Source: Chloroflexota bacterium
Lineage (GTDB): Bacteria > Chloroflexota > Anaerolineae > Aggregatilineales > Phototrophicaceae
Assembly (NCBI GenBank): GCA_011525385.1
Contig: WTGF01000094.1
Span: 1 to 64,000, forward strand
Direction: 5' to 3'
DNA length: 64,000 nucleotides
Every line of letters starts with the position of its first letter. Position 1 is the first letter of the stretch. Positions 19,955-42,539 of the stretch are shown here, piece by piece. The notes under the pieces were generated by a model. It worked only from the letters and a program-made list of their open reading frames with translations. It searched no databases and was not told the origin of the DNA. A program made the position numbers and the translations under genes.

Positions 19955-20115
19955 TGCGCGACATGGCTAAAGAGGGGCGATTCCAGTGAATCGCTCCTTA
20001 TTGGGCTCGCCATGTCGCAAGCCGCCGCGCATTCCCCCAGCCGGAATACAGTGAAGCGATGGTCCCGCTTCTTGTCAGAGCTTTTGCTCCTTGTCTCATG
20101 TATATGTTTTGTAAA

Positions 20116-21285
20116 CTAATGCTGAGGCACCGGCAGAGTTACTAGCAACTGTTTCGATTCAAGGTTCCATATCCACAGTCTGCCATCTGGACCGATTGAC
20201 ACCATTAACTCGCCATTTGGGTAGATTGCTGCCGCCCGGCCGGGATATTCGGTGATTTCAAAGTTGCTTTTGATATTCCATACGGCGATTCCAGATTCTC
20301 CGCTCCCAATCATGAACCCACCATTCAAAGTAAATGACGCTGGAGTATAGGCATAATTCAAGGCCTCAATTACGGGCTCGTCGGTCGCCATATTCCAAAC
20401 CCATGTCCATTCCTCGAACAGACACTTGTAGACTAACAAGAGAAGGGAATTATTGTAGCTAAATCGCAATCTATTCCGGGCTCCGCAGTCGGGCTCGCTA
20501 GTCAGCTTGCTGGTTTTCAATGCCCATGTATCGGTCTCGTAAACCAGTACCTTTACTTTACCTGTCATGAACAAATCCGCTGTTACGACGGCAAACAAGG
20601 TGCCATCTGGGCTGAAGGCACCTGTTCTGCCATGCTCTGTCAAGTTTGCCAGCGACTGCCCGAGACCGTTTTCAATATCAAACTCGTAAATGTGTGCGTT
20701 GTCGCTTGGTCCCGACCATCTCGCCAACTGGCTCCAATCGGGGCTTAGCCAAGTATAGTAAACCCGCTCTCTCCCACGTTGGGCATCAATTGCGTGGATT
20801 TGTTGGCCCGTATGTATATTCCATATCGACATCTTGCTGTCCCTAAACCACCAGTCACTAAAGGTCATGACATAGTTACTGTCAGGGCTGAAAGAAGTCC
20901 GCCCAAAGTCAGTCGGCGGCTCTGTCGATGTTCTTTGGAGATCGAGGATGCTAAGGCCCTCCTCTATGTCGAAGATAGCCAACTCGGGCAAACTTGCCAC
21001 GGCAAGATAGCGATTATTCGGGCTAAAGATCATCCTTGCGCTACTCGCGATGCCTCCTCCCAGAAACCGAGGTGGCAGCAGGAGATTTTCCAGATCGTAA
21101 ACCCAGATTTCATGAGCCGCATTCGGATATTCGGTCCCCTTGACACCAGACTGTATAGCCAAGTACCGTCCGTTTTCGGACATGGCAATGGCTATGACTT
21201 GCCATGATGGAGCTTGTTCTTGCGCTTGACTTATGTGAAGACAACAGGCAAGCGACAGAAAAAAACACCGATCGCTAGAATCCAT
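20116..21285 (-). CDS. Module A1: secreted WD40-like beta-propeller protein
   Basis: Signal-peptide-like N-terminus, repeated FSPDxxxxxxxS and WDxxTG-type blades, C-term IWNLESKQLLVTLPVPQH. Confidence 0.75.
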   Translation of the reverse strand: MDSSDRCFFLSLACCLHISQAQEQAPSWQVIAIAMSENGRYLAIQSGVKGTEYPNAAHEIWVYDLENLLLPPRFLGGGIASSARMIFSPNNRYLAVASLPELAIFDIEEGLSILDLQRTSTEPPTDFGRTSFSPDSNYVMTFSDWWFRDSKMSIWNIHTGQQIHAIDAQRGRERVYYTWLSPDWSQLARWSGPSDNAHIYEFDIENGLGQSLANLTEHGRTGAFSPDGTLFAVVTADLFMTGKVKVLVYETDTWALKTSKLTSEPDCGARNRLRFSYNNSLLLLVYKCLFEEWTWVWNMATDEPVIEALNYAYTPASFTLNGGFMIGSGESGIAVWNIKSNFEITEYPGRAAAIYPNGELMVSIGPDGRLWIWNLESKQLLVTLPVPQH

Positions 21286-21312: not shown

Positions 21313-22806
21313 CTACGTACTCGATTCCGTACTTACGTAAAAGAGACCAGGGATTCTCTCCGGATCTATGTTTTCGCCGTATAGGCGCTCATCATTATTC
21401 TGAGACAGAGTGCTGCGTTCGGCATACCCAAAAAAGAAATGGACGAAATCGGGATCGCTTCGATAAGTTTGCAGCGCATCTGCCATCTCCCCTGGCTTTT
21501 TCGAGCCATAGTACACAATTGCTAAATCCAGGTGCTGATTATTGTGGTAGTCCTTGGTGTTCACGTACGGGAGCTTCTCCCCTGTTTCAGGGTGTATGTT
21601 ATTGGGGTCTGTCAGTCCTGTGTTCCCGGTTTTTCCTATGATGGCTTCGTCCTGAGTATCGATAATCTTGCCGGGATAGATGTGCTCGGTATTGATTTCG
21701 GATAGGTGACCATAGGCAATGAATATCCTTCCATCTTCCCGCCATTGTCCCGGACTATGGTTGGTGTCACTTGACAAACTTCGCATAATTGTTTCGTCTT
21801 CCAAGTATACTGACGCTGGAAAACTGATGACAACATAGTTTCCTAATGCTGTATCGTTGGATGCCGCTGGGACAACAAATTCCACTCTGACATCCGGACC
21901 AACTACAGGTGACTGCACTTGAAATGGTCTATATATATCGGTTATCTTGTTATAATCCTGTGAAATCACACCCGCTCCGCTTGCGTCGTACGGCGCGAAA
22001 GACATTTTGACCGGCACTTCTTCATCATCGGCTACGATCGATTGCAGTATATACTCCGTTGGAGTGGCAGTAAGATCTGGAGCATCAGTGGCGATGATTT
22101 GCGCAGATGTTTGTGTAGGATAGTTCTCACGCTCTACAAATGGAACGAGGTCAAATTCAGCGTCTGGATCTAAAGTGTAAATCCAGTATTCTTCGTTGTC
22201 TATTTCAATCAGATACGCTGCGTTACCCGAATCCGATGTTCGCAGATACCTAAATTGCGCTGGCGTGCCGGAGATTTCATAAGTCATGTGAGGTGAATCC
22301 ACACCTGGCACAAATGTTTCTTGCTTGTAGGCCCTCAGAATCCCTAAAACTTCTATCCCAATACTAGGCTGTTCCCTCGTGTTGTCCGCCAGGTCTTGCG
22401 CCGTCGTCTCGACCGGCGCCGAATCCGCTTGCGCCAACCTCTTATCCCAATCCGAGTGTCTGACTTCGTCAAGCAATTCCAACGCACGTCGATCAGATTC
22501 ATCGTCCAAGCCCGATCCCGCGAACTGGGACATATACTCAGCATATTGTTCCTTGGACGGCAAGCCATACTCTTTGACAACCACCAGGGCAACCCATGCC
22601 AGGTCATCATCCACTATGCTCAAGAGATAATCGATATGCTGTCTTTGCCCTTCGCTTACAGCTGTGTAGCCAGTCAAAGACGTCGATTCTTCCGGCTCGA
22701 AGTCCAGTAGTCCCGCTTCGCTGATATCGCGTATTCCTTCGTGCTCCGAGAAGCCGGCAATAGCTTGCCCGCCTGAATTTGCGGCGAGGGCGTAGCACTT
22801 ACTCAA
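21313..22806 (-). CDS. Module B1: N-terminally truncated copy of the B3-type protein with M23-like C-terminal domain
   Basis: ALAANSGGQAIAGFSEHEG...then GNYVVISFPASV, IAYGHLSEI, IIGKTGNTG, HLDLAIVY; only TTG start available. Confidence 0.65.
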   Translation of the reverse strand: MSKCYALAANSGGQAIAGFSEHEGIRDISEAGLLDFEPEESTSLTGYTAVSEGQRQHIDYLLSIVDDDLAWVALVVVKEYGLPSKEQYAEYMSQFAGSGLDDESDRRALELLDEVRHSDWDKRLAQADSAPVETTAQDLADNTREQPSIGIEVLGILRAYKQETFVPGVDSPHMTYEISGTPAQFRYLRTSDSGNAAYLIEIDNEEYWIYTLDPDAEFDLVPFVERENYPTQTSAQIIATDAPDLTATPTEYILQSIVADDEEVPVKMSFAPYDASGAGVISQDYNKITDIYRPFQVQSPVVGPDVRVEFVVPAASNDTALGNYVVISFPASVYLEDETIMRSLSSDTNHSPGQWREDGRIFIAYGHLSEINTEHIYPGKIIDTQDEAIIGKTGNTGLTDPNNIHPETGEKLPYVNTKDYHNNQHLDLAIVYYGSKKPGEMADALQTYRSDPDFVHFFFGYAERSTLSQNNDERLYGENIDPERIPGLFYVSTESST

Positions 22807-22834
22807 GCCTAGGAATCGTGATCACCTTTTGTCT

Positions 22835-22945
22835 AAACATCCAGTTGATTTGTGAATCAGCGAGATGAGGCTCGCCCTGTCGCAAGCCGCCGCGCGTCTC
22901 CCTGCCGGATTACGGTAAAGCGGATGGTCCCGCCTCAAATGAATG
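22835..22945 (-). repeat. Leader element E2 (hybrid hairpin)
   Basis: GGGAGACGCGCGGCGGCTTGCGACAGGGCGAGCCTCATCTCGC + TTCACA + TGGATGTTTAG on minus strand. Confidence 0.75.
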
Positions 22946-22959
22946 AACCAGCGTTTGTA

Positions 22960-24156
22960 CTAGGCTGAGTGGTAGACGAAATACAAGCCCCAACCCAATG
23001 TTTTACTGCCCTCTACAAGAAAACGTCCATCGGGACTGAATTGCATTACTGTCCCTTGATTATCTTCATCCCTATAGTCCAATTGCGGGATGAATATTTC
23101 TGTATCGGCGGTCAGATCCCAAGCCCGGATTTGGCCACATTCATCGACCGTCATCAGCAGACTCCGGTCAGGGCTTATATCACCATCAGTGATACGGCAG
23201 GGGCGCTTGTCCGGATGTGATTGCAATTCTCGTAGCAGATTCAAAGTATTGCCGGAGCGCGACCAACGGCTGACAGTTGCATCTTCTAGGACAATCAGTT
23301 GGGAATCATCATCTGTAAACAACAATTCCGCAAGCGATTCGGCGCCTAAATCGGCTGAGGCTTCGGGCGTCCAGGAAACCGTGTCCCAGATCTGGATGAC
23401 CCCGTTTCCAGCAGTGGCCAAGAGCCGGCCGCCATCCGAAAAGGCCAAAGCATCCAGCATTAGATCGTCGTCCGTTTGCAGGTCGATTTCGGAGACCGAG
23501 TGCGATGCGAGGTCAAATCGGAACAGCCTCTCATGATCAATCGCGACCAGCAGCCATTCTTCCGAGGGGTGCAGCAATAGTTCGCTGACATTCCCTTCAG
23601 CAATGTGAATGTCATAAGAGAACTTTTCTTTTACCTGTTCCCATTTGCCGGAGTTCCATATATCGTCGTCCCGAGCGTAGCGTTCCCATTCGTCGGTGTC
23701 CCAATTGCCGATGCCCCAATTGCCGATGTCCAGAAAGTAAAGGCTGCCGGCATTCGTCCCGAGGATAATTTTGTGGTTTACAAGTTCCAGTTGATCGACG
23801 GGCATGTTGACCGCGATATACTTGCCCCTAATTTCAATTGGCTGAAAATAGCGCACGTCGACTACATCAGCATGAAAGACCCTCGAGACGGACAGATCAC
23901 CATCCCCATCTATGGGACATGGCGGGTATAGGTGTTCAAGACAATAGTAACCCAACAGAATGATGATGGGTTCGGTCTTGTGCCACCTCGCTTCCTTTAA
24001 TGACGGAACATCTCCGCCGAAGGTGCGAATTCGGTGAACATTGTCGGCGGAGAACTCTCCGTGGAGAGTACAGGCATCCTGGCACAGTATATTTTGACCG
24101 TGCGCGTCACTGACAGCAAATGCGAATATTAAAGCGACGATTGTTTTCCACAACAT
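22960..24156 (-). CDS. Module C1: secreted WD40-like beta-propeller protein
   Basis: MLWKTIVALIFAFAVSDAHGQ signal peptide, FSDGGRLLATAGNGVIQIWDT, GDISPDRSLLMTVDECGQIRAWDL. Confidence 0.75.
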   Translation of the reverse strand: MLWKTIVALIFAFAVSDAHGQNILCQDACTLHGEFSADNVHRIRTFGGDVPSLKEARWHKTEPIIILLGYYCLEHLYPPCPIDGDGDLSVSRVFHADVVDVRYFQPIEIRGKYIAVNMPVDQLELVNHKIILGTNAGSLYFLDIGNWGIGNWDTDEWERYARDDDIWNSGKWEQVKEKFSYDIHIAEGNVSELLLHPSEEWLLVAIDHERLFRFDLASHSVSEIDLQTDDDLMLDALAFSDGGRLLATAGNGVIQIWDTVSWTPEASADLGAESLAELLFTDDDSQLIVLEDATVSRWSRSGNTLNLLRELQSHPDKRPCRITDGDISPDRSLLMTVDECGQIRAWDLTADTEIFIPQLDYRDEDNQGTVMQFSPDGRFLVEGSKTLGWGLYFVYHSA

Positions 24157-24166
24157 CAATTGCTTC

Positions 24167-24685
24167 CTACCTGAGCATTGCCGCCAACTGCAAGAACCAA
24201 CGCTCAGTCTCTTCAAATGGGCTATTGGGATCAAAATCGAAGCTCGCCTCCTGCTTTGTGATGGAACGATCGTCGGCAAACCAGGTTTCGTCAACCAGAT
24301 CGTAGCGCACCCAGTTTACGCCGTTTATGCCAACAGCGTTCCAGAGATGAACGGCATCATCATTGTCATCTTTAGTGCGTCCATACAGGATGACCTCTGT
24401 GCCTTTCTGCAGGTAAGCGATTTTCTTCCCTTTGTCCGAAGGAATTGATCGGACGACAGCACCCCTCTTGGGTTCAATCGTTCCAATCCCGATGACCGGC
24501 GGCAGCATATCTTCTTCGGCGAAGAATCTCATCACATTGGGATCATCAAGCGCATTATGGACAATCGCATTTCGGATCGCCACATCCATATTCTGGTCCA
24601 TAAACTGCTGCCAGTTCAGACCTGCCTGGTCCGGCGTGAAGCCATACAGTCCCCCGGTGCTTTGATGGTAAAACCAGTTTAGCAC
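24167..24685 (-). CDS. Module D1: SH3b-like domain protein; frame open upstream to 24865 without a canonical start
   Basis: ADAVLNWFYHQSTGGLYGFTPDQAGLNWQQFMD; SH3b-like region GAVVRSIPSDKGKKIAYLQKGTEVILYG. Confidence 0.6.
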   Translation of the reverse strand: MLNWFYHQSTGGLYGFTPDQAGLNWQQFMDQNMDVAIRNAIVHNALDDPNVMRFFAEEDMLPPVIGIGTIEPKRGAVVRSIPSDKGKKIAYLQKGTEVILYGRTKDDNDDAVHLWNAVGINGVNWVRYDLVDETWFADDRSITKQEASFDFDPNSPFEETERWFLQLAAMLR

Positions 24686-24889
24686 AGCATCGGCTGTGAT
24701 TTCATTTCTGCCAACCAGCCTATCATACGGAACGTCGTCCGGGTCATATACTTCCAGACTTTGTTGCAGTGATTGAATCTGCGTCGCGATATGCGGCGCC
24801 TTGTCAAAGATGAAATGATCTGGCGACGGCGCTCCGATCTGTTGATAGATCTGAGGCAGGGGTATAGCTCTTTCCTTTCTAAAGCATCA

Positions 24890-25025
24890 AAAGGATCTGT
24901 GAATGGGAGCCGCGCAGCTCGCCCTGTCGCAAGCCGCCGCGCATCTCCCTGCCGGAATACGGTAAAGCGGATGGTCCCGCTTGTTGTCAGTGCTTTTGCT
25001 TCTTATCTTATGTATATGTTTTGTA
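24890..25025 (-). repeat. Leader element E3
   Basis: Hairpin 24905-24949 GGGAGATGCGCGGC-GGCTTGCGACAGGGCGA-GCTGCGCGGCTCCC, then TTCACAGAT, TGATGCTTTAG. Confidence 0.8.
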
Positions 25026-25027: not shown

Positions 25028-26200
25028 CTAATGGCGAGGCACCGGCAGAGTTACTAACAACTGCTTCGATTTGATATTCCATATCGATACCCTGCCATCT
25101 GGAGCGATAGTCGCCATCAACTCGCTGTTGGGGTGGAGTTTAGGATCTTTACCCGGGTAGATAGTCAACTCAAAATCTCGTGGCACGTTCCAGACATGAA
25201 TCGATGAATTCTCTGGCGACAGACCAATGGTACTGGCAATTAAATGCTCATCGTCCAACGTAAATACAGGGTCAGCACTGAAAGTTTCAGCCAGGAAAAT
25301 CACTTCATTGGTCTCAAAATTCCAAACCGACACTGCTTTATCGGGACGACAACTGGCAGCAAGTAATGGTTTGCTGTGACTGAATCCAAAACGCACACCG
25401 AGATCGCCGCAGGGAGTTTTATGGTGCTGTATCTTGTTTTTCAAGGTCCATGTATAGGTCTCATATACTTGGACTTCACCTTCCCATGTTGCAAAAGCAA
25501 ATAATGAACCATCCGGGCTGAAGGCCGCTCCTGCATCTACCGCGGAGATGCCAACTAAAAGCTGACCCAGTCCCTGTTCAATATCAAATTCGTATATTAC
25601 GGCTAGTTCATGCCTTGACCAATCTACAAATTGAGTCCAGTCGGGACTTAGCCACGGACGCTGCACCCACTGCTGGGAGCGGAGAGCCGCAACAGCATGG
25701 ACTCGCTGACCGGTATGGACATTCCATATCGACATCTCATGATCATATGTCCACCAGTCGCTATAGGACATGATATAGTTACTATCTGGACTAAATGTAA
25801 TCCATTTGAAGTCAGTACGTAGCGCAGTGACTGAGTTCGGAAGGCCGAGGACCGTGACTTTGCTATCCGCGTTAAAGACCAATAATCTGTAATACCCACC
25901 GAGGGCAACGTACCGACTGTCTGGGCTAAAGACCATTCTAGCCTCAGGATCCAGCATTTCTCCCAGATATTGAGGCGGCAGCAGCAAATCCTCAAGATCA
26001 TAAATCCATATTCCATGATGGAACTCTCGGTGCCCTGGGATGTTCTCGCCATATTTCACGGCGAGATATCGCCCATTGTTTGACATCGAAATGGATATAG
26101 CCCGCCATGCAGCATCTTCTTGCGCCTGCAAGACATAGTGAAAGCAAGTTAGATAGAAAAGCAGGGCTGTGATGATTTGTACAGGTTTATTCCTGAGCAT
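25028..26200 (-). CDS. Module H1: secreted WD40-like protein
   Basis: MLRNKPVQIITALLFYLTCFHYVLQAQ signal peptide; FSPDSRYVALGG, C-term IWNIKSKQLLVTLPVPRH. Confidence 0.75.
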   Translation of the reverse strand: MLRNKPVQIITALLFYLTCFHYVLQAQEDAAWRAISISMSNNGRYLAVKYGENIPGHREFHHGIWIYDLEDLLLPPQYLGEMLDPEARMVFSPDSRYVALGGYYRLLVFNADSKVTVLGLPNSVTALRTDFKWITFSPDSNYIMSYSDWWTYDHEMSIWNVHTGQRVHAVAALRSQQWVQRPWLSPDWTQFVDWSRHELAVIYEFDIEQGLGQLLVGISAVDAGAAFSPDGSLFAFATWEGEVQVYETYTWTLKNKIQHHKTPCGDLGVRFGFSHSKPLLAASCRPDKAVSVWNFETNEVIFLAETFSADPVFTLDDEHLIASTIGLSPENSSIHVWNVPRDFELTIYPGKDPKLHPNSELMATIAPDGRVSIWNIKSKQLLVTLPVPRH

Positions 26201-27554
26201 AGAGACTCCTCCCTCTTGCGTCTTTAGCGAATTCTGATTCGTCAAGATGGGTCCAAACTCTTACCGGATCAATGTTTTCGGCATATAGCGTACGGTTCGG
26301 ATGAGGATCTGGATAGACAAAGTTGCTGCGTTGCGCGAATCCGAAGAGAGAGTTGGCATCTCTAGAAGGAGACAGTATTGCCATTGCAGTTTCCATTTGG
26401 TCTGTACCACTATCTTGTGACCCAACGTACACAATGGCCAGATCCAAATGATTAATCTGTGTTCCAGTGTTTCCAGTCACTCCTATTAGAGCGTTACTCT
26501 CAATTGACGCGCCTGGTTGAATATGGTCCTCAATTTTTGACAAGTGAGCAAATCCCATGAATATCCTGCCGTCCTCTTGCCAATTCCCAATCTTATGGTC
26601 GGGGTCTTCTGCCAACCTTTGCATAACGCCCTTGTGTGCTCGGAGGACGCTGGCGGGAAAGCTAATGACAACATAATTGCCTAGATCCTTGTGTCCTTCG
26701 GCGCGAATTTCAACTCTTACATCCGGTCCCACTGTAGGTGACTGAAGTTGAAATTCAAAAGTATCGTTGTGAGGATTTAGGTCGCGCGTGAGTATTCCTT
26801 TTCCACCGCTATCGACCCACAGTGAATGAGATAACTCGATATCCAAGGTTCCGCCCTCAGCTTCGTCGTTAACTACAAATGATTGTAGCAGAGGTGGAAT
26901 TGTTGCCGCTATCAGTGCGTTTTGAAAGTCGAATGAAGTGTTATCATAGCTTTGTCCAGATACTTGTACACGTCGTGAAGTGAATGGACTAGACGCTAAG
27001 TCAACTCGACGAAACTCTAGTTCAGCGTCGGAGTCTCTTAGATCAATCCAGAACTCACTTCCACCGAATTCGATCTTGACGGCGTAGGGATCTGAGTGGG
27101 ATTGGTCCAATACCCTTAATCTGGTTTCGTCAAATGAAAAAGACCAGTCAGGAATCGCCTCACTGCGAAGAACAGCTTCTTCATTTCCGTACAAGTTTAA
27201 ATTTCCTTTTACGTGCACCGCTACATATTGCTCTTCCTGCAGCATCATCCACTCCGGCGGATTGAGCCGGTCCATCCGCGTCTGCGCCCACGACCTGGCT
27301 TCCAACAGCGCATGTTCCTCCGCCGTCCCCGGAGCCACTTCATAACTGGCTTCCTCGGCGCGTATACGAATCATTCCGCGCGCGCCACGAACGTAGACAT
27401 ATTCGTAGCCTTGTGGCGTCACGACCATCAGCATCTCCGCGCCCGCCGCGAAAGCCGCGCGCAAGTCCGCCTCCGAGGCATCGCTGCCATTGGGATGATT
27501 ATGTATGAAGATCAGGTCGAGTCCCTTAAAGGCTTCGACCTCGTAATCCTGCAA
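26187..27554 (-). CDS. Module G1: truncated JAB/MPN-like N-terminus plus degenerate M23-like domain
   Basis: IFIHNHPNGSDASEADLRAAFAAGAEMLMVVTP (HxHP-x6-SxxD JAMM signature) and GNYVVISFPASV, FAHLSKI, LIGVTGNTG, HLDLAIVYVGS. Confidence 0.7.
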   Translation of the reverse strand: MQDYEVEAFKGLDLIFIHNHPNGSDASEADLRAAFAAGAEMLMVVTPQGYEYVYVRGARGMIRIRAEEASYEVAPGTAEEHALLEARSWAQTRMDRLNPPEWMMLQEEQYVAVHVKGNLNLYGNEEAVLRSEAIPDWSFSFDETRLRVLDQSHSDPYAVKIEFGGSEFWIDLRDSDAELEFRRVDLASSPFTSRRVQVSGQSYDNTSFDFQNALIAATIPPLLQSFVVNDEAEGGTLDIELSHSLWVDSGGKGILTRDLNPHNDTFEFQLQSPTVGPDVRVEIRAEGHKDLGNYVVISFPASVLRAHKGVMQRLAEDPDHKIGNWQEDGRIFMGFAHLSKIEDHIQPGASIESNALIGVTGNTGTQINHLDLAIVYVGSQDSGTDQMETAMAILSPSRDANSLFGFAQRSNFVYPDPHPNRTLYAENIDPVRVWTHLDESEFAKDARGRSLYAQE

Positions 27555-27607: not shown

Positions 27608-27755
27608 AAGCATCAAGTCGATCTGTGAATGGGAGCCGCGCAGCTCGCCCTGTCGCAAGCCGCGGCGCATCTCCCCCAGCCGGAATACAGTGAAGCGATG
27701 GTCCCGCTTCTTGTCAGTGCTTTTGCTTCTTATCTTATGTATATGTTTTGTAAAC
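27608..27755 (-). repeat. Leader element E4
   Basis: Hairpin 27631-27675 with loop GGCTTGCGACAGGGCGA. Confidence 0.8.
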
Positions 27756-28957
27756 TAATGGCGAGGCACCGGCAGAGTTACTAGCAACTGTTTCGATTTG
27801 ATATTCCATATCCATACCTTGCCATCTGGACCGATAGTCGCCATTAGTTCTCCATTAGGATGAACTTGCGGATTGGTTCCCGGATAGACCGACGTTTCAA
27901 AATTGTCTTTCGCATCCCAGACAATGATCTCAGAATATGCAGATACTCGGCCAAGCAATCCAGCTACCAAAACACCATCATCTTGAGTGATATATCTGAA
28001 TTGTCCTGATCTTTCGGTTTGAAGCAGCAGTGCGCCAGTTTCGATATCCCAAACGAGCAACCGATTACATTCGTAAATCAACCATGGATTAATATGTCCA
28101 AAAGCCAGGGTTACATCCGCTCCGCCACAGGAATGTTCGCCGAGGACTTGTATGAACGACAATTCCCAAGTGTCTGTCCGATACACCTTTATCTCGCCAT
28201 CCGGAATCACCAGCCCAAACAGGGAACTATCCGGGCTGAAAGCGATGCCTCGTACATCGATTGTGTCGATCGGAACGACGCCAAGAGGTGAGCCAAGCCC
28301 CTGTTGGACATCAAACGCGCGCAATTGTACGCCCTCAGGATGCCACCAATCCAGAAACTGTCGCCAATCAGGACTTAGCTTGGGGAGTTGCCAGGACTGC
28401 CCGACTCGTTCAGCGGGAATAGACAGGATTCGCGACCCCGTGTCAATATCCCATATCGACAATTCATGATCCCTTGTTGCCCACCAGTCGCTCAAGAACA
28501 TGATGGACAAACCATCAGCGCTAAAAGAGATCGTACTTAGGTCTAATGGTTTTTCGGTTGCAGTTCGCTGCATGTCGAGTATTAGAGAGTTATCTCCTAA
28601 ATTGAAAATCTCTAATCGTTCGTATTCAGCAAGCGAGATATATCGACTGTCAGGGCTAATAGCTATATAGGTGTCGGAAAAGCTTGTTCCCCGAAGGTAG
28701 CGCGGCGGGGACAAAAGGTCGTCAAGATCGTATATCCATACTCCGCTATCGTAGCCCGATTCGTCTCTGTCTTCTTTCTTCACATAAGCGCCATACTTGA
28801 CGGCCATATGCTGACCAGCGTTGGACATTAAGATCTTGACGGCTTCCCAAGGGACCCGTTCTTGCGCCTGTACCAGATAGGGCAGGCATGCGAGGAAACA
28901 GACTAGAATCGCTATGGTGTATGCTCGATTATTCATCTTCAAAGTAAATACTGTCAT
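27755..28957 (-). CDS. Module A2: secreted WD40-like protein
   Basis: MNNRAYTIAILVCFLACLPYLVQAQ; beta-propeller blades; LLVTLPVPRH end. Confidence 0.75.
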   Translation of the reverse strand: MTVFTLKMNNRAYTIAILVCFLACLPYLVQAQERVPWEAVKILMSNAGQHMAVKYGAYVKKEDRDESGYDSGVWIYDLDDLLSPPRYLRGTSFSDTYIAISPDSRYISLAEYERLEIFNLGDNSLILDMQRTATEKPLDLSTISFSADGLSIMFLSDWWATRDHELSIWDIDTGSRILSIPAERVGQSWQLPKLSPDWRQFLDWWHPEGVQLRAFDVQQGLGSPLGVVPIDTIDVRGIAFSPDSSLFGLVIPDGEIKVYRTDTWELSFIQVLGEHSCGGADVTLAFGHINPWLIYECNRLLVWDIETGALLLQTERSGQFRYITQDDGVLVAGLLGRVSAYSEIIVWDAKDNFETSVYPGTNPQVHPNGELMATIGPDGKVWIWNIKSKQLLVTLPVPRH

Positions 28958-30509
28958 TCGGATCTCCGTCTTTGTTAAAGTATTGAGCGAGTCTAAAAGT
29001 GTCAAGTTCGGGGTGAGTCCTCGCGGTGTCGAGATTTTCAATGTACAAGATAGAATTGCCGTTTGGGAAAAGCTGGCTCGCTGCAGCTAAACTGAAAAAG
29101 TGCTCGACAGATTGGGAGTTTTCATCTACATACTTTCCCCTTAGCCAATCCAGTTTGCTGTCTAACGCACCGCTACCTGGTTCACTTGAACCAACGTACA
29201 GCTCAAGCAAATCCAAGTGATGGTATTTTATGTACTTTCCTGTATTGCCAGTTTTACCGATGAGTGATTTGTCTGCATCATTAATGACTTGCCCGGGAAC
29301 AATATGGGGTTCGATACGGGATAAGTGCGCGTACGCTATCATTATCCTGCCGCCTTCCTGCCAACGTTCAGGATTATGTTCTGTTAAGCGCGACATACGC
29401 CGCATTCTCGCACGCTCATCTTCCGTCAGATGATTCGCCAGACTTCGGTTCCACAAACGCTGCGACGCCAAATTCTGCATCTCTAATTGGTGCATGATCT
29501 CCGGGTCTGATAGGTATACCGACGCCGGAAAACTTATCACAACATAATTGCCTAAACTTGATTCAGGATTCGATTCAGCTCGAATAACCAGTTCGACTCT
29601 CACATCAGGTCCAATTACGGGTGACTGCACCTCAAATTCAGTATTCGTCCTGGTATTGTAATCACGTGTTAGCGTACCTAATTGGCTTAGGGTCCTATCT
29701 GCATAGACTCTATACGATATTTCGACATCTTCCGTTTCGGTATCTTCACCAGGAACAATAGACTGTCTTTCGTAGTCTGTAGAATAACCGCTGGCGACGA
29801 CTTGCTTGGTGGTATGTGGATACTGATCCTCATTCTCTACAAATGGAACGAGGACAATTTCAGCGTCTGGATCAAAAGTGTCTATCCAGTATTCTTCGTT
29901 GTCTATTTCAATCAGATACGCTGCGTTACCCGAATCCGATGTTCGCAGATACCTAAATTGCGCTGGCGTGCCGGAGATTTCATAAGTCATGTGAGGTGAA
30001 TCCACACCTGGCACAAATGTTTCTTGCTTGTAGGCCCTCAGAATCCCTAAAACTTCTATCCCAATACTAGGCTGTTCCCTCGTGTTGTCCGCCAGGTCTT
30101 GCGCCGTCGTCTCGACCGGCGCCGAATCCGCTTGCGCCAACCTCTTATCCCAATCCGAGTGTCTGACTTCGTCAAGCAATTCCAACGCACGTCGATCAGA
30201 TTCATCGTCCAAGCCCGATCCCGCGAACTGGGACATATACTCAGCGTACTGTTCCTTGGACGGCAGGCCATACTCTTTGATAACCACCAGGGCAACCCAT
30301 GCCAAGTCATCATCCACTGTGCTCAAGAGATAATCGATATGCTGCCTTTGTCCTTCGCTTACAGCTGTGTAGCCGGTCAAAGAAGTCGCTTCCTCCGGCT
30401 CGAAGTCTATCAGTCCCGCTTCGCTGATATCGCGTATTCCTTCGTGTTCCGAGAAGCCGGCAATAGCTTGCCCGCCTGAATTTGCGGCGAGGGCGTAGCA
30501 CTTACTCAA
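28929..30509 (-). CDS. Module B2: N-terminally truncated B-type protein with M23-like domain
   Basis: N-terminal ~220 aa almost identical to B1 and to the interior of B3; GNYVVISFPASVYLSDPEIM, IAYAHLSRI, LIGKTGNTG, HHLDLLELYVGSS. Confidence 0.65.
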   Translation of the reverse strand: MSKCYALAANSGGQAIAGFSEHEGIRDISEAGLIDFEPEEATSLTGYTAVSEGQRQHIDYLLSTVDDDLAWVALVVIKEYGLPSKEQYAEYMSQFAGSGLDDESDRRALELLDEVRHSDWDKRLAQADSAPVETTAQDLADNTREQPSIGIEVLGILRAYKQETFVPGVDSPHMTYEISGTPAQFRYLRTSDSGNAAYLIEIDNEEYWIDTFDPDAEIVLVPFVENEDQYPHTTKQVVASGYSTDYERQSIVPGEDTETEDVEISYRVYADRTLSQLGTLTRDYNTRTNTEFEVQSPVIGPDVRVELVIRAESNPESSLGNYVVISFPASVYLSDPEIMHQLEMQNLASQRLWNRSLANHLTEDERARMRRMSRLTEHNPERWQEGGRIMIAYAHLSRIEPHIVPGQVINDADKSLIGKTGNTGKYIKYHHLDLLELYVGSSEPGSGALDSKLDWLRGKYVDENSQSVEHFFSLAAASQLFPNGNSILYIENLDTARTHPELDTFRLAQYFNKDGDPNDSIYFEDE

Positions 30510-30529
30510 GCCTAGGAATCGTGATCACC

Positions 30530-30610
30530 TTTTGTCTAAACATCCAGTTGATTTGTGAATCAGCGAGATGAGGCTCGCCCTGTCGCAAGCCGCCTCATCT
30601 CGTTGAAGCA
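30530..30610 (-). repeat. Leader element E5
   Basis: Perfect 11-bp stem CGAGATGAGGC/GCCTCATCTCG (30564-30602) around loop GGCTTGCGACAGGGCGA. Confidence 0.85.
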
Positions 30611-30704: not shown

Positions 30705-31796
30705 TTACTGGGGTTGGTGAATGATCCACAAACCCCAGCCAAAGCTGCCGCCGGTAAACAGGAGACGCCCATCTGGATTGAACCGAATGATTTCTCCCCG
30801 AACAGGGGGCTCTGTAAAATCCAATTGCGGGATGTATATTTCCGCGTCCGCAGCCAAGTCCCAAGCGCGAATTTGACCGCAATCATCTGTTGTCATCAGC
30901 AGGCTCCCATCCGGGCTGATATCGCCATCGTTGATGAAACAATAACGCCTGCCAGCATTGGGTTCCAGCTTGCGAAGGAAATCCAGGCGCTTGTCAACAA
31001 GCGACCAGCGGTTGACAGAGGCATAGGAAATGACAAGCAAATGCGAGTCGTCGTCTGTAAAGCGCAGCACTTGGGCCGAGTCCGCAGATAAGGGACGCGG
31101 CTCCCAGGCTTCCCACGTGTCTGTATGCCAAATGCCGAGCATCCCGCTCCCGGCCGCGGCCAGGAGCTGACCGTCGCTGGAAAAAGCCAGGGCGTTGAAA
31201 TCCTGAAGTTCGTTCGCCTGCAACTGTATTTCTGCAACAGTCTGCGATTCTAGATCAACTCGAATCAGCTTCCGATGATCCGTGACGACAAGCAGCCACT
31301 CGTGGCTTGGATGAAGCAAGACCTCAGTGACCCATCCGCCGTTGACCCAATCGTCGCTGATCTGAAGATCAAGCAGGAACTTATCTTGCTCCAAGTCCCA
31401 AAACTCAAGCTTGCCAATTGTTGTCCCAATGACGGCTTTATCCGATGTGACAGCCAGTTTTGTATAGGTGTGGTTGAACCTGAGCGGTTCCTTCTTTCCG
31501 GTGAATGTAGCATACCCATTAACGTATTCCAGTCGCCAGATATCCACGTAGTCTGGTATCGCCCTACGGCCTGAAATCAGCGCGAGCAATGGTTCGGTTT
31601 TATGCCAGCTCGCCTCGAGATAGCCTTCGCCATCTATGCCTACCGTGTTATGGGTATGATGGACGTTATCGGCGGAAAAGGCCGGACCCGGCACACAAGT
31701 CTCATAATCCCAGCGAAAGCACATCAATTCATCGTGCGCGGAGCTGATGCAGTGGAGAAACAGAAACACGAGCATGGCTGCCATCTTATTGAGCAT
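30705..31796 (-). CDS. Module C2: secreted WD40-like protein
   Basis: MLNKMAAMLVFLFLHCISSAH; FSSDGQLLAAAGSGMLGIWHT; GDISPDGSLLMTTDDCGQIRAWDL. Confidence 0.75.
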   Translation of the reverse strand: MLNKMAAMLVFLFLHCISSAHDELMCFRWDYETCVPGPAFSADNVHHTHNTVGIDGEGYLEASWHKTEPLLALISGRRAIPDYVDIWRLEYVNGYATFTGKKEPLRFNHTYTKLAVTSDKAVIGTTIGKLEFWDLEQDKFLLDLQISDDWVNGGWVTEVLLHPSHEWLLVVTDHRKLIRVDLESQTVAEIQLQANELQDFNALAFSSDGQLLAAAGSGMLGIWHTDTWEAWEPRPLSADSAQVLRFTDDDSHLLVISYASVNRWSLVDKRLDFLRKLEPNAGRRYCFINDGDISPDGSLLMTTDDCGQIRAWDLAADAEIYIPQLDFTEPPVRGEIIRFNPDGRLLFTGGSFGWGLWIIHQPQ

Positions 31797-32322
31797 TTGC
31801 CACTCCTTCGCCAAGATATCGCGCCAAATCGAAGAAGAGATCCCATTCTTCTTCAGCGGAGCTGCCGGGATCAAAGTCGAAAAACGGATCGTCTTGACCC
31901 ACTTGCGCGGGTTCATTTTCCATTGGGATCAAAAGATATGAAGCCACCCAACGTTTTCTGCCATTCCAGATGATCGCTGTCCAATTGTTGTCTTTTCCAT
32001 TGAATTCGCCCACGGTTTGCCCAATTACAGCGACCTGTTCGTCCAGCTTCAAGGAATGAATCGCGGGGTTGTCCGTCGAAGGCCCGGTCCGAACGTTAAT
32101 CCAATTATCTTTGCCAGATGTAAATCCAGCAAAATGCGGCAATGTCTTCTCTTCCACGAAGAAAGGTATATGGCTATTATCTCGCAGCGCATTGTAGACA
32201 ACCGCATTTCGGATCGCCTCGTCCATAGTATCGTCCATAAACTGCTGCCAGTTCAGACCTGCCTGGTCCGGCGTGAAGCCATATAGTCCCCCGGTGCTTT
32301 GATGGTAAAACCAGTTTAGCAC
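31786..32322 (-). CDS. Module D2: SH3b domain protein; frame open upstream to 32502 without a canonical start
   Basis: DNWINVRTGPSTDNPAIHSLKLDEQVAVIGQT...WTAIIWNGRKRWVASYLL SH3b signature. Confidence 0.65.
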   Translation of the reverse strand: MLNWFYHQSTGGLYGFTPDQAGLNWQQFMDDTMDEAIRNAVVYNALRDNSHIPFFVEEKTLPHFAGFTSGKDNWINVRTGPSTDNPAIHSLKLDEQVAVIGQTVGEFNGKDNNWTAIIWNGRKRWVASYLLIPMENEPAQVGQDDPFFDFDPGSSAEEEWDLFFDLARYLGEGVANAQ

Positions 32323-32664: not shown

Positions 32665-33831
32665 CTAATGGCGAGGCACCGGCAGAGTTACTAGCAACTG
32701 CTGCGATTTGATATTCCATATCGATACCCTCTGATCAGGATTTATTGCTGCCATTAGCTCGCCATTCGGATGCAACTGCGGAATTAATCCTGGATAGGTG
32801 GACTTTTCAAACCCGTTGTTCGCATCCCAGACTGATATCTTGTACTCGACAGGTATATGAATGATATGGTCTGCAAACAGCACTCCATCGTCTAACGAGA
32901 TATGGCTGAAGGTCCCGTCTGGTTTATCTCTGAGCAGCAATTCGCCGGTCTCGATATCCCAAACATGTAACCATCCTTCCCCGTAACATACGAACCACGG
33001 CTTGACATGTCCGAAAGCGAGAGTCACTAAACTGTCGCCGCACTTGTGTACATCTTTTGCTTGTATAAATGTCAGGTCCCAAGTGTCAGTCCGAAACACC
33101 TTTATGTCGCCTTCGGTCGTAGCGAGCGCAAAGAGCGAGCTATCTGGGCTGAAAGCCGCGCCGCTCGCCGCATCCGAAAAAGTTGCTAGACGTGAACCAA
33201 GCCCTTTTTCGATATCGAAATCATATATTCTTACGCCGTCGGAATGCGACCAATGCAAAAACTGACGCCAATCAGGACTTAGCCAAGGGCGTTCCACAAT
33301 CTCCTGGGATTGGTGAACAGGAACCGCGAAAATACGAGCGCCCGTTTCGATATCCCATATCGACATCTCACTATAGTGAGTGCGCCAAACGTAGCTGAAG
33401 GCCATAATGTTTTCGCCGTCAGGGCTAAATGACTGTAGTCTAAAGACTGCAGATCCTTCGGTTAAAGGATTCGAGATTTTGATAATATGTGAGTTGCCTT
33501 CTGTTCTGAAAATCCTCAATCGTTTCCTGTCGGCGACTGCGATCTTCGTACTGTCAGGACTAAATGACAAGTTGGCTCTATCGTCGTCTAACTGCGCAAG
33601 AAACTGAGGCGGGGACGAACGATCAGCGAGATTGTATGTCCATACTTCTCTTACGAAATTGTAGCCATCCCATTCATCAGTGGCGTATATGACGGCCAAG
33701 TGCCGTCCGTTGGTCGACATGGCAATGGATTCGGCCAACCAAGGCGCATTCTCTTGCGCTTGGGCCGTAATGTCGAAACGCGCGAGACAACAGACCAGAA
33801 GAACAGCCATTAGGATCCGGTTATTGCGCAT
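32665..33831 (-). CDS. Module H2: secreted WD40-like protein
   Basis: MRNNRILMAVLLVCCLARFDITAQAQE; FSPDSTKIAVAD; LLVTLPVPRH. Confidence 0.75.
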   Translation of the reverse strand: MRNNRILMAVLLVCCLARFDITAQAQENAPWLAESIAMSTNGRHLAVIYATDEWDGYNFVREVWTYNLADRSSPPQFLAQLDDDRANLSFSPDSTKIAVADRKRLRIFRTEGNSHIIKISNPLTEGSAVFRLQSFSPDGENIMAFSYVWRTHYSEMSIWDIETGARIFAVPVHQSQEIVERPWLSPDWRQFLHWSHSDGVRIYDFDIEKGLGSRLATFSDAASGAAFSPDSSLFALATTEGDIKVFRTDTWDLTFIQAKDVHKCGDSLVTLAFGHVKPWFVCYGEGWLHVWDIETGELLLRDKPDGTFSHISLDDGVLFADHIIHIPVEYKISVWDANNGFEKSTYPGLIPQLHPNGELMAAINPDQRVSIWNIKSQQLLVTLPVPRH

Positions 33832-35305
33832 AAATGCTATAGCCCTTCATATACTCAGCGATGCCTGATTCGTCAAGTTCAGGATGAAGTCTTGCTGAGT
33901 CCATGTTCTCAGCGTATAGAATGAAACGATTATTTGTCGGGTAAAGTTGGCTCCGTTCCACCAAGCCGAAGAAGTAGGAGACTGAATTAGATCCCTTCCT
34001 TTTGTATTCCGATCGCAGGATATTCAGTTCTGTCTCCATCGCGCCGCTACCTGGATTGCTAGAACCAACATACAGTATAGCTAAATCCAAATGATGTTGG
34101 TTTGTTCCAGATTTGCCTGTCAAGCCTATTATCGCCCGATCTCGACTATTAATCGTTTCTTCAGCATTTACATAGATTTTGGATAGGTGAGCAAATGCAT
34201 AGAATATCCTCCCGTCTTCGTGCCAACGATCAGGATTGTGATCAGCTATGCTCGCCATGCGCTCCATTTTCGAACGCTCTTCCTCCGTCAGATGCGGCGC
34301 CAGACTTTGATTATTCAAATGCGCGGCTGCCTGCCCTTGCATCGCCAATTGCTGCATGATCTCTTCGTCCGATTGATAAACAGACGCCGGGAAACTGATC
34401 ACGACGTAATTCCCCAGCGTTTCATGACCGCGAACTACAAACTCAACTCTCACATCTGGCCCAATTACCGGCGACTGTAATTGAAATGATTCATGGATTT
34501 TCTCTGGGTCATCTTCATCGGGAACATGATTATAGTCACGTGACAGCAATCCTCGCTTGGTCTTAGGATCATTGTCGCGTCCCGTTCTATCTGCCCACTC
34601 TTCATCGGATGTTTCGATATTCGACGATCCGCCATGTGCTCTCTCATCAGGAACGATAGGCAGTATCTCATAGCCCGATGGAGCGCCAGTGGCGACGACT
34701 TCCTCCATCGTTTTCGTAGAACTGTCGCCATGCTCCATAAGTGGAACAAAGGTCATTTCAGCGTCCGGGTCTGAGATGTCTACCCAGAATTTCCAGTCCC
34801 CTAATTCAATCCATACGGCATGAGGATTCAACTGAGAATACCCAAATACCCTCAACGGCGGTGAATTGTCAGCAGCTATAACTGGCAGGAAGGGTGTGTC
34901 AACTCGGTCAAACAGCTCATCAGGGTAGAGTCTCAGGGTCCCAGAAACCTTTAGCCCAATAGTCGGAACGTATGGTTCTCGTTCCTCTTGCAGCATCATC
35001 CACTCCGGCGGATTAAGCCGATCCGCCTGCGTCTGCGCCCACGACCTGGCTTCCAACAGCGCATGTTCCTCCGCCGTCCCCGGAGCCACTTCATAACTGG
35101 CTTCCTCGGCGCGTATACGAATCATTCCGCGCGCGCCACGAACGTAGACATATTCGTAGCCTTGTGGCGTCACGACCATCAGCATCTCCGCGCCCGCCGC
35201 GAAAGCCGCGCGCAAGTCCGCCTCCGAGGCATCGCTGCCATTGGGATGATTATGTATGAAGATCAGGTCGAGTCCCTTAAAGGCTTCGACCTCGTAATCC
35301 TGCAA
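33821..35305 (-). CDS. Module G2: truncated JAB/MPN-like N-terminus plus degenerate M23-like domain
   Basis: N-terminus near-identical to G1; C-terminal GNYVVISFPASVYQS, FAHLSKI, IIGLTGKSG, HHLDLAILYVGSS. Confidence 0.7.
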   Translation of the reverse strand: MQDYEVEAFKGLDLIFIHNHPNGSDASEADLRAAFAAGAEMLMVVTPQGYEYVYVRGARGMIRIRAEEASYEVAPGTAEEHALLEARSWAQTQADRLNPPEWMMLQEEREPYVPTIGLKVSGTLRLYPDELFDRVDTPFLPVIAADNSPPLRVFGYSQLNPHAVWIELGDWKFWVDISDPDAEMTFVPLMEHGDSSTKTMEEVVATGAPSGYEILPIVPDERAHGGSSNIETSDEEWADRTGRDNDPKTKRGLLSRDYNHVPDEDDPEKIHESFQLQSPVIGPDVRVEFVVRGHETLGNYVVISFPASVYQSDEEIMQQLAMQGQAAAHLNNQSLAPHLTEEERSKMERMASIADHNPDRWHEDGRIFYAFAHLSKIYVNAEETINSRDRAIIGLTGKSGTNQHHLDLAILYVGSSNPGSGAMETELNILRSEYKRKGSNSVSYFFGLVERSQLYPTNNRFILYAENMDSARLHPELDESGIAEYMKGYSIYAQ

Positions 35306-35505: not shown

Positions 35506-36717
35506 CTAATGGCGAGGCACCGGCAGAGTTACTAGCAACTGTTTCGATTTGATATTCCATATCCATACCTTGCCATCAGGACCGATAGCAACCATTAACT
35601 CGCTGTTGGGGTGGATTTGCGGATTTATTCCCGGATAGACCGACATCTCAAAATCGTTTTTTGCATCCCAGACTTCAATCGTAGAACCTCCAGGTAAATT
35701 GCCACTTTGAGTTACCAAAACTCTATCGTCTAGGGTGATGAATCTGATTCGCCCTGCTTCTTCGGATTGAAGCAGCAATGCGCCGGTTTCGATATCCCAA
35801 ACGAGTAATCGTCCGTACCAATCGCACTTGAAAATCAGCCAGGGATTAATATGTCCGAAAGCCAGGGTCACATCCGCATTGCCGCAGGAATGTGCGCCGA
35901 GCATCTGTACGTACGTCAATTCCCAAGTGTCTGTCCGAAAGATCCTTATCTCGTCATCCGGTGTCACGAGCGCAAACAGCGAACTATCCGGGCTGAAAGC
36001 GACGCCTCTTTCATCACGAATATCGACTGAAACAGAACCGAGAGTTGAGCCAAGCCCCTGTTGAATATCAAATTCATGTATCTGGATCCCGTCAGGATGC
36101 CACCAATCCAAAAACTGTCGCCAATCAGGACTTAACCGGGGGAGAGGTAACCTCGACTGCGCAGCTCGTGCTGAGGGAATAGTCAGTATTCGCGCCCCCG
36201 CGCCAATATCCCATATCGACATTTCATGATCGTCCGTTGCCCACCAGTCGCTTAAGGACATGATGAACTTACCATCCGCGCTATAAGAGACCGTACTGAA
36301 GTCCGAAGCTATTTCGGTAGCAGTACTCGGCAGGTCAAGTATTGGGGTGTTTTCTGCTATGTTGAAAATCTGCAATCGGTGATGTTCGGCGAGTGAGATA
36401 TGCCGGCTGTCAGGACTGAAAGCTATTAAGGTTCCGTAAAATTCTGCCCCCCGAAGATGACGCGGTGGGGATAAAAGATCGTTAAGATTGTATATCCATA
36501 CGCCGCTATCGTAACCCGACTCATTCCTATCTTCTTTCTCCACATGAGCACCATATTTTACGGCTAAACGCCGTCCATCGTTGGATATTGAGATTGAGAC
36601 AGCTTCCCAAGGATCCTGTTCTTGCGTCTGTATCCGATAGGGCAAACATGCAAGGAAACAGACTAAAAGCGCAAAAATGTATGCTCGATTATTCATCTTC
36701 AAAGTAGATGCTGGCAT
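35506..36717 (-). CDS. Module A3: secreted WD40-like protein
   Basis: MNNRAYIFALLVCFLACLPYRIQTQ; propeller blades; LLVTLPVPRH. Confidence 0.75.
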   Translation of the reverse strand: MPASTLKMNNRAYIFALLVCFLACLPYRIQTQEQDPWEAVSISISNDGRRLAVKYGAHVEKEDRNESGYDSGVWIYNLNDLLSPPRHLRGAEFYGTLIAFSPDSRHISLAEHHRLQIFNIAENTPILDLPSTATEIASDFSTVSYSADGKFIMSLSDWWATDDHEMSIWDIGAGARILTIPSARAAQSRLPLPRLSPDWRQFLDWWHPDGIQIHEFDIQQGLGSTLGSVSVDIRDERGVAFSPDSSLFALVTPDDEIRIFRTDTWELTYVQMLGAHSCGNADVTLAFGHINPWLIFKCDWYGRLLVWDIETGALLLQSEEAGRIRFITLDDRVLVTQSGNLPGGSTIEVWDAKNDFEMSVYPGINPQIHPNSELMVAIGPDGKVWIWNIKSKQLLVTLPVPRH

Positions 36718-38685: not shown

Positions 38686-39123
38686 CTAGACCGCGCCCCA
38701 GGTCGGCGCTGTGCCCGTCGCCGGCTGCAAGGTCGCCGTGAACATCACCGCCCCGCCGGTCGTGATCTGCGGACGGTAGCTCGACACCAGGAACTCCCCG
38801 CTGTACTTGGGATCGTTCGTGGTCGGCGCCGCGTTGTTGCCCACCTGCACCTCCAGCGAGACCTGGCTCCCGGCCGCGAAGGCGCCCTGGATGACCGTGT
38901 GCGTGCCGGTGTCTGCGGTGGTCGTCAGATAACCCTGAATCGTCACCGGCGCCCGCAACTGCCCGTTGATATACTGGTGCACTTCGTCGCCGAAGCCGGT
39001 GACATCGAACTGGTCGTAGGTCAGTCCCAGGTCGATGCTGCGGATGTCCCCATCCGCGAAGGTACGCAAGGTACCGCTGCTGTCGTCCATCTTTACGATG
39101 ACGTGATCTCCTGACAATGCCAT
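38686..39123 (-). CDS. Phage tail tube-like protein
   Basis: MALSGDHVIVKMDDSSGTLRTF..DQFDVTGFGDEVHQYINGQLRAPVTIQGYLTTTAD.GTHTVIQGAF..GSQVSLEVQVG. Confidence 0.65.
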   Translation of the reverse strand: MALSGDHVIVKMDDSSGTLRTFADGDIRSIDLGLTYDQFDVTGFGDEVHQYINGQLRAPVTIQGYLTTTADTGTHTVIQGAFAAGSQVSLEVQVGNNAAPTTNDPKYSGEFLVSSYRPQITTGGAVMFTATLQPATGTAPTWGAV

Positions 39124-39165
39124 GATATGTTTCTCCTTTTTGTGCGTTGGTTTTTGTACTGATTG

Positions 39166-41418: not shown

Positions 41419-41424
41419 CGCCTC

Positions 41425-41808
41425 CTAGATATGTTGATAACGGTTGACATAACCGTGCAGGACGATGGCGTTGGCCGCGGTGGCGAAGGCGCGGACAAGC
41501 GCGCCATTCTGCAGCACATGGCCCGGGATGACTTCCGTGAAGCCGTTCTCCGCCGGAATCGTGACTTCGATGAGATCATCCGGGGCGCTCGTCCCGCCCC
41601 ATTCCACCGTCAATTTGACCGGGGCAGCCGACGTGTTCACCGCCTGAATAAAGATCTCATCCCATTCATTGGCCGCGATACTGCTCAGCGCCGTGTGGAC
41701 CAGGGTGCCGGGGCTGCTGCCCGCCGCTACTTTGATGCCGCGTCCGTCAGTGCTGCCGCTCAGCTTGCGTTTCTGGTAATCGCGATAGTCGCGCATGTCA
41801 TGTGGCAT
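41425..41808 (-). CDS. Small phage-structural-like protein
   Basis: ORF between phage-like genes on the same strand; beta-rich; MPHDMRDYRDYQKRKLSG start. Confidence 0.5.
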   Translation of the reverse strand: MPHDMRDYRDYQKRKLSGSTDGRGIKVAAGSSPGTLVHTALSSIAANEWDEIFIQAVNTSAAPVKLTVEWGGTSAPDDLIEVTIPAENGFTEVIPGHVLQNGALVRAFATAANAIVLHGYVNRYQHI

Positions 41809-41854
41809 ATTGTTTCTCCTTTCTTGCTCCTTGAGCATGCTAATGGAAGGATGC

Positions 41855-42331: not shown

Positions 42332-42415
42332 TGTATGTCCTCCTGTTTTCAACTTTTGTCATTTCTCGTGTATAGTGGATTTGCCCTGCCAAACATCAAG
42401 CAGGTTTGTGAAATT

Positions 42416-42456: not shown

Positions 42457-42539
42457 ACCCTCTCTCTGCTAGGTACTCTGTAATCTCCCATTTCTTATTG
42501 TCTCACCTGCACCTCCTCCTTTTTATATTTGCTGATCTC

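What the first reader, a model, noticed from the sequence alone, without database searches (positions are those of the whole stretch)
22835..22945. E2 is a chimeric hairpin: left half of one leader type, right half of another
On minus, E2 reads GGGAGACGCGCGGC (E3/E6-like arm), loop GGCTTGCGACAGGGCGA, then GCCTCATCTCGC (E5 arm). The two arms no longer pair well although both parental types do. The switch point lies in the conserved loop, as expected from recombination at the loop core.
Basis: seen in the sequence. Interest (0 to 1): 0.75.

Follow-up and report, generated by a model that had tools for sequence, protein, structure and literature searches.

The report
Old chimeric copy of toxin-gene leader
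E2 is a real but broken hybrid of two versions of an apparently new folded RNA leader that sits in front of dozens of toxin-like and tail-fibre-like genes in one genus of uncultured Chloroflexota bacteria; the same hybrid occurs in two other species, so it is an inherited scar of gene-array duplication and not a sign of ongoing rearrangement.

Summary
At 22874-22888(-) lies GGCTTGCGACAGGGC. E2's right side is identical to E5 over about 110 nt and 97% identical over 766 nt, and that match stops at the core. Its left arm is E3/E6-type (43 of 45 nt). The joined arms do not fold better than shuffled sequence (z -0.45; E5 -5.3).

The element is a family of about 70-nt 5' leaders: a covarying stem, a two-purine bulge and a conserved apical loop, followed by UUCAC, UUGAUG, a Shine-Dalgarno site and a start codon. 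It has no Rfam match and was found in 18 of 34 species of one Chloroflexota genus, with nothing credible outside it. It precedes polymorphic-toxin-like and tail-fibre-like genes. Stand-alone copies follow promoters carrying a TAGAAC-N4-GTTCTA operator that also precedes dinB.

The "recombination at the loop core" reading is only partly right. Only 3 of 105 close comparisons break at the core, all involving these chimeras. No recombinase was found on this contig. Best reading: an old tandem-duplication joint between two leaders, now decaying. Leader function is inferred, not shown.

The parts
22889..22933 (-). E2 left half: type-A leader upstream part and left stem arm (GCGGGACC...GGGAGACGCGCGGC)
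   Evidence: 43/45 identical to the left half of E3/E6; block boundary at GAG|GCGGG shown by G009, where the same upstream gene tail runs on into other sequence
22874..22888 (-). E2 conserved core GGCTTGCGACAGGGC, the switch point
22838..22873 (-). E2 right half: type-B (E5) right arm GCCTCATCTC plus UUCAC and UGGAUG motifs
   Evidence: identical to the same part of E5; CM R1 match 22838-22906, 63.7 bits
21313..22806 (-). Gene X2 behind E2 (497 aa, TTG start); body 97% identical to X5 and 96% to X8; N-terminally shorter than X8
   Evidence: X2/X5 226 codons, 12 synonymous and 9 nonsynonymous codon changes, no indel
22960..24294 (-). WD40 beta-propeller gene upstream of E2 (3' part of module Z3)
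   Evidence: Pfam WD40; tail 89% identical in G009:C29
30541..30609 (-). E5, intact type-B leader (donor type of E2's right half)
   Evidence: CM R1 72.2 bits, folding z -5.32
24885..24953 (-). E3, intact type-A leader (donor type of E2's left half)
   Evidence: CM R1 73.0 bits
32522..32590 (-). E6, type-A leader, same sequence as E3
   Evidence: CM R1 73.0 bits
27611..27679 (-). E4, type-A leader
   Evidence: CM R1 72.8 bits
35362..35430 (-). E7, type-A leader, same sequence as E4
   Evidence: CM R1 72.8 bits
38595..38664 (-). E8, type-A leader of the full-length gene X8 (36689-38575)
   Evidence: CM R1 74.6 bits; folding z -4.41
20004..20068 (-). E1, half leader at the array end: type-A left half and core fused to a terminator-like hairpin; same arrangement in four other species
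   Evidence: CM R1 partial match 16.2 bits
42394..45838 (-). Six type-C leaders (42394-42462, 43061-43129, 43732-43798, 44424-44492, 45089-45156, 45772-45838), each before an approx. 155-aa MAWTTPKTDW gene
   Evidence: CM R1 57-79 bits; genes

Best explanation
E2 is the joint left by recombination between two members of a repeated 5' leader RNA family inside a tandem gene array. The left half comes from a type-A leader (E3/E6-like, or the array-end half leader E1). The right half, with the start of gene X, comes from a type-B leader (E5-like). The shared core of about 20 nt provided the matching sequence. An unequal crossover of this kind duplicates the block in between and leaves exactly one chimeric leader at the new joint. 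The event is old, because the same combination is found in two other species. The chimera no longer forms the stem and its core is decaying in at least one of them, so it is most likely a silent or weak leader. The intact element is most likely an RNA-level translation or stability control leader. It is transcribed from a promoter with a LexA-type operator when stand-alone, or as part of an operon when in an array. A trans-acting factor, probably an RNA-binding protein, would read the stem with its GGCUUGYGACAGGGC apex and co-regulate toxin-like and tail-fibre-like genes. Shown: the chimera, its presence in three species, poor folding, stem covariation, position upstream of genes, association with the operator. 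Inferred: unequal crossover as mechanism, loss of function of E2, RNA-level action, SOS control, the trans-acting factor.
For: Chimera: block boundary at the core; same junction in G017 and G032; upstream 700 nt of the G017 chimera is 94% identical to the upstream side of window E1 and stops at core+5; the G032 chimera's left arm GGCAGGGGAATGCACGGC is identical to that genome's own array-end half leader; array-end half leaders in five species; XYZ block duplicated in tandem. Leader RNA: stem with 109 doubly changed cells against 47.5 +/- 6.8 shuffled and at most 33 when slid; also in a divergent subfamily; an open frame on the same strand begins shortly downstream in nearly all copies, with SD and start; -35/-10 plus operator in 26 of 30 type-D copies, 2 of 35 A, 0 of 12 B, 0 of 49 C; the operator also precedes DNA polymerase IV and a LexA-like HTH gene.
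Against: The window's own E2 has a different upstream gene tail from the one before E1, so further exchange must have happened after the joint formed. Independent formation of the three chimeras is not excluded, since gene bodies and upstream tails differ between them. The strand test for RNA (G-U versus A-C mismatches in the stem) is in the expected direction but not significant (62 vs 46, p = 0.15). Gene X2 still shows purifying selection against X5, so the module behind E2 may not be silent, or it is kept by gene conversion. The SOS link rests on one dinB gene, one LexA-like HTH gene and the operator shape; the full-length lexA (C46) lacks a clear box.
Confidence: 0.7

Rival explanations
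1. The core is a true site-specific recombination site (attC-like or similar) and modules are cassettes exchanged at it; E2 and E1 are natural products of that exchange.
For: E1 and E2 both break at the core, and the array ends in a half leader in five species. Modules are tandem and co-oriented.
Against: Only 3 of 105 close comparisons end at the core, all involving the same chimera type. The four tyrosine recombinases found in the genome are on other contigs; no serine recombinase was found. Stem arms covary in pairs, which frequent exchange at the core would destroy. Many copies are single, with their own promoter and start site. The conserved part is the apex, and no R-box-like GTT...AAC pair is seen at the stem base.
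Confidence: 0.07
2. E2 is an ordinary decayed leader whose left arm drifted, not a recombinant.
For: E2's relatives in G017 and G032 show point changes and a 2-nt deletion in the core.
Against: The left arm is 43/45 identical to E3/E6 and unlike the E5 left half, while the right side is identical to E5. Drift cannot produce that.
Confidence: 0.03
3. Assembly artefact: repeats collapsed or mis-joined in this metagenome-type assembly.
For: Highly similar repeats in a fragmented assembly are a classic source of mis-joins.
Against: The same A/B combination occurs in two other assemblies with different neighbours. E2 and E5 blocks differ by 3%, and E2's left half differs from E3/E6 at 2 sites, so it is not a copy of either.
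Confidence: 0.05
4. Gene conversion or short-patch replacement of the leader's left half, rather than unequal crossover, made the chimera.
For: In the window the A-type left half is a 45-nt island between an unrelated gene tail and the core. In G009 the same gene tail continues into other sequence at exactly that boundary.
Against: In G017 the homology to the E1 side runs 700 nt upstream, as expected for a crossover or duplication joint.
Confidence: 0.3
5. The leader works through a pseudoknot: loop UUGUGA pairs with downstream UCACAA, switching access to the ribosome site.
For: 95% of cells pair in the main set, and most changes at the downstream A positions are A to G opposite U.
Against: C in the loop (12 copies) is matched by G in only 2. 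The pairing is not kept in the divergent subfamily. The 4-nt linker is short for a 12-bp stem.
Confidence: 0.12

Closest known systems
Structured cis-acting 5' leader RNAs of bacteria (Rfam cis-regulatory families)
   Same: Covarying stem, conserved apical sequence, fixed place between promoter and ribosome site, many copies before related genes
   Different: No Rfam family matches; confined to one genus; dozens of copies per genome, one per gene even inside operons; ligand or binding partner unknown
Polymorphic toxin loci with standalone cassettes (PMC3482391)
   Same: Long modular proteins with diverse C-terminal toxin domains (AHH nuclease, CdiA_C, M23 peptidase), N-terminally shorter copies in tandem arrays, partner gene (WD40) behind most
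   Different: Each module carries its own structured leader; immunity role of the WD40 partner untested; delivery system unknown
SOS-controlled bacteriocins and tailocins (colicin and pyocin type)
   Same: Operator of the GAAC-N4-GTTC type inside the promoter, shared with a dinB gene, in front of toxin-like genes; phage-tail-like genes in the same window
   Different: No lysis gene or complete tail cluster examined; LexA binding not shown
Integron gene-cassette arrays (attC)
   Same: Tandem co-oriented modules separated by imperfect hairpins
   Different: Apex rather than stem base is conserved; no linked integrase; breakpoints are rarely at the core; single copies have their own promoters

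Membership tests
Structured 5' leader RNA (cis-regulatory type) | Compensatory base changes in the stem | tested here: met
   109 doubly changed cells, 0/500 shuffles, slid controls at most 33; in divergent subfamily
Structured 5' leader RNA (cis-regulatory type) | Lies between promoter and ribosome site of a gene, same strand | tested here: met
Structured 5' leader RNA (cis-regulatory type) | Transcribed and affects expression of the gene behind it | not testable with these tools
   No expression data held
Any described Rfam family | Match at gathering score | tested here: not met
   Window: 0 matches. Four further loci at E up to 5: only low-scoring matches to unrelated families, all below their gathering scores
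Integron attC array | Integron-type tyrosine recombinase with the array | tested here: not met
   PF00589 gives 4 genes, none on C41 or C15; a trans-acting one is not excluded
Integron attC array | Conserved R boxes at the stem base and variable loop | tested here: not met
   Here the apex is conserved and the stem base varies by type
Integron attC array | Exchange breakpoints concentrated at the site | tested here: not met
   3 of 105 close comparisons end at the core
Polymorphic toxin locus | Shared N-terminal parts with diverse C-terminal toxin domains | tested here: met
   Curated cut-off passed by AHH in two proteins, CdiA_C in one and M23 in two; several other AHH matches and one M23 match were below cut-off; many proteins have no family match
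Polymorphic toxin locus | Adjacent immunity gene | tested here: inconclusive
   WD40 gene follows most modules, but function untested; no PADLOC match
SOS (LexA) regulon | Operator shared with canonical SOS genes | tested here: met
   Same palindrome before DNA polymerase IV and a LexA-like HTH gene
SOS (LexA) regulon | LexA binding and induction by DNA damage | not testable with these tools
   No binding or expression data held

The most novel reading that the evidence does not exclude
A genus-specific RNA regulon: one dedicated factor reads the GGCUUGYGACAGGGC hairpin in front of about 20-30 toxin-like and tail-fibre-like genes per genome and sets their translation after DNA-damage induction. 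Module shuffling at leaders switches individual genes off by making non-pairing chimeras such as E2.
Probability: 0.3. Interest if true: 0.72.

Novelty: new member of a known kind. Interest (0 to 1): 0.45.

Why it matters
The chimera alone is an ordinary duplication scar. The element it breaks is more useful: an apparently undescribed structured leader family that marks a large toxin-like and fibre-like gene set in uncultured Chloroflexota. It gives a simple sequence handle for finding these genes and predicts that they form one regulon joined to the DNA-damage response. E2 and its relatives in G017 and G032 serve as natural loss-of-structure variants.

Tried and rejected
Rfam at gathering score on the window and at E up to 5 on four loci: nothing credible. 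Viral contigs: no match. Class-wide search of 250 genomes with the covariance model: seven weak hits outside the genus (24.8-30.2 bits) that look like chance; they are not in front of related genes. Pseudoknot between loop and UUCAC motif: not sustained. G-U versus A-C strand test for RNA: not significant. General core breakpoint hot spot: rejected. Non-ATG start codons (AUU/AUA) as a special feature of type-B genes: considered, dropped because the frame does not stay open and TTG fits better. Literature searches found no description of this element.

Full report
WHAT WAS CHECKED. The finding says that E2 (22835-22945, minus strand) joins the left half of one hairpin type to the right half of another, with the switch in a conserved loop. 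The sequence is as described. The core GGCTTGCGACAGGGC occurs 19 times in the window at up to 3 mismatches against 2.6 expected. With C or T at the seventh base it occurs 26 times exactly in the genome, against none for the reversed control.

THE CHIMERA. Self-comparison of the array gives a 766-nt block, 22126-22891 against 29829-30594, at 97% identity. It ends 3 nt past the core. On the other side, E2's left half matches the E3 and E6 left halves at 43 of 45 nt and is unlike that of E5. Right halves of E2 and E5 are identical over about 110 nt. Cognate arms in 126 elements form 14.3 arm pairs on average and randomly re-assorted arms 9.4; E2 forms 9 and is among the lowest four. Against shuffled sequence, E2 has z -0.45, E5 -5.32, E8 -4.41 and E3 -2.35.

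THE ARRAY. On the minus strand the array reads E8-X8, E7-Y7, E6-Z6, E5-X5, E4-Y4, E3-Z3, E2-X2, E1. Each module is a leader, a gene, then in most modules a WD40 gene. Blocks X, Y and Z recur at about 7.6-7.8 kb, so the array grew by tandem duplication of a three-module block. It ends in E1, a left half plus core fused to a terminator-like hairpin. The same kind of end is present in G009, G017, G021 and G032.

THE CHIMERA IS OLD. A DNA search of 34 genomes of the genus found the same A-left/B-right leader in G017:C67 and G032:C56. The surrounding genes differ: the gene behind the G017 chimera is different, the G032 one is 94% identical to X2, and the upstream tails are not those of E2. The G032 core has decayed to GGCTAGACAGGGT and the G017 core to GGCTTGCGGCAGGGC. 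Neither chimera folds better than shuffled sequence (z -0.61 and +0.25). The combination is therefore shared between species, or formed repeatedly, and in either case is not a fresh event of one assembly.

WHERE BREAKPOINTS FALL. Among 105 gene-anchored comparisons of leaders at 85% identity or more, homology ended upstream of the leader in 57, at the leader's 5' edge in 16, inside the gene in 15, ran through in 14, and ended at the core in 3. All three involve chimeric X leaders. The one comparison anchored on the other side that ends at the core joins the G017 chimera to window E1: 94% over 700 nt, ending at core+5. This fits an unequal crossover between an array-end half leader and a type-B leader, which leaves exactly an A-left/B-right joint. 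In G032 the chimera's left arm is identical to that genome's own array-end half leader. In the window the A-type left half is a 45-nt island below a different gene tail, so some later exchange must be assumed. No serine recombinase was found in the genome, and its four tyrosine recombinases are on other contigs.

WHAT THE ELEMENT IS. Across 36 diverse copies the stem has 109 cells with changes on both sides, against 47.5 +/- 6.8 in shuffles and at most 33 in slid controls. A divergent subfamily in front of other MAWTTPKTDW genes keeps the same stem. There the apical helix UUG/CAG shows C-G for U-G, U-A for U-G and one A-U for G-C, and in two copies a different triloop. The consensus is: stem, GGC-UUG-YGA-CAG-GGC, two purines, stem, then UUCAC(A/G), UUGAUG, a Shine-Dalgarno site and a start codon. 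An open frame on the same strand follows nearly every copy. A covariance model finds it in 18 of 34 species of the genus, up to about 30 per genome, and nothing credible elsewhere. A pattern search of GTDB genomes found it in Chloroflexota MAGs, apart from one record labelled Azoarcus (L051) that was treated as chance. Isolate codes of several of these MAGs suggest marine sponge samples, but the source was not checked. Rfam has no match.

WHAT IT PRECEDES. (a) Long modular proteins with C-terminal AHH nuclease, CdiA_C or M23 peptidase domains, which is the pattern of polymorphic toxins (PMC3482391). (b) Proteins of about 155 aa starting MAWTTPKTDW, weakly similar to phage tail-fibre families. 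In the window the two sets flank genes with matches to phage tail families. Every species of the genus has at least one diverged member of set (b), and leader-rich species have up to 21. The diverged copy in this genome has the operator but no leader.

PROMOTER AND OPERATOR. In 26 of 30 type-D (mostly stand-alone) leaders a -35/-10 promoter contains TAGAAC-N4-GTTCTA; this is so in 2 of 35 type A, 0 of 12 B and 0 of 49 C. The same palindrome precedes a DNA polymerase IV gene and a LexA-like HTH gene. GAAC-N4-GTTC is the LexA motif of Gram-positive bacteria (PMC3323433). SOS control is therefore likely, but not shown.

MECHANISM. Most likely the leader acts as RNA at the level of translation or stability, because it precedes each gene even where no promoter is seen, and lies between promoter and ribosome site where one is. 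A trans-acting reader, probably a protein, is inferred from the invariant apex. E2 cannot form the stem and should be a weak or non-functional leader. Selection on X2 is still purifying relative to X5 (12 synonymous and 9 nonsynonymous codon changes), which leaves room for another way of expression or for gene conversion. The strand test for RNA was not significant, and a pseudoknot between apex and UUCAC motif is not sustained.

VERDICT.

Noticed in passing
20004-20068; L135 approx. 3077; L137 approx. 16331; L133 approx. 4299; L138 approx. 3976: The array ends in a half leader (left arm plus core) fused to a terminator-like hairpin in five species.
   Followed up: partly
L011, L012, L013, L014, L015 upstream of the core; L116; L132: LexA-type operator TAGAAC-N4-GTTCTA inside promoters of stand-alone leaders, and also before DNA polymerase IV and a 75-aa LexA-like HTH gene.
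   Followed up: partly
window 38686-41907: Genes on the minus strand between the fibre-like array and the toxin-like array match PHROG families: major tail protein, minor tail protein and one of unknown function.
   Followed up: no
L199, L200, L201, L202, L203, L205-L208: Divergent leader subfamily with altered apex (for example TGTTTATGACAGAAC, TGCTTGCCTCAGAAC) but a conserved stem before other MAWTTPKTDW genes.
   Followed up: partly
L127 (G000:C81:47869-48375): A diverged MAWTTPKTW gene with the operator but no leader; a similar diverged copy is found in all 34 species, a possible founder of the expanded family.
   Followed up: partly
window 20116-21285, 22960-24294, 25028-26245, 27755-29041, 30705-31916: WD40 beta-propeller genes follow the toxin-like genes in the array; role (immunity or other) unknown.
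   Followed up: no
window 33821-35305 and 26187-27554: Genes Y7 and Y4 start inside a domain with a HNHPNG motif (JAMM-like by eye) that in a relative (L063) is preceded by a longer N-terminus; they look N-terminally shortened.
   Followed up: no
window 46303-50655: 1450-aa protein with a protein kinase domain (Pfam Pkinase) next to the arrays.
   Followed up: no
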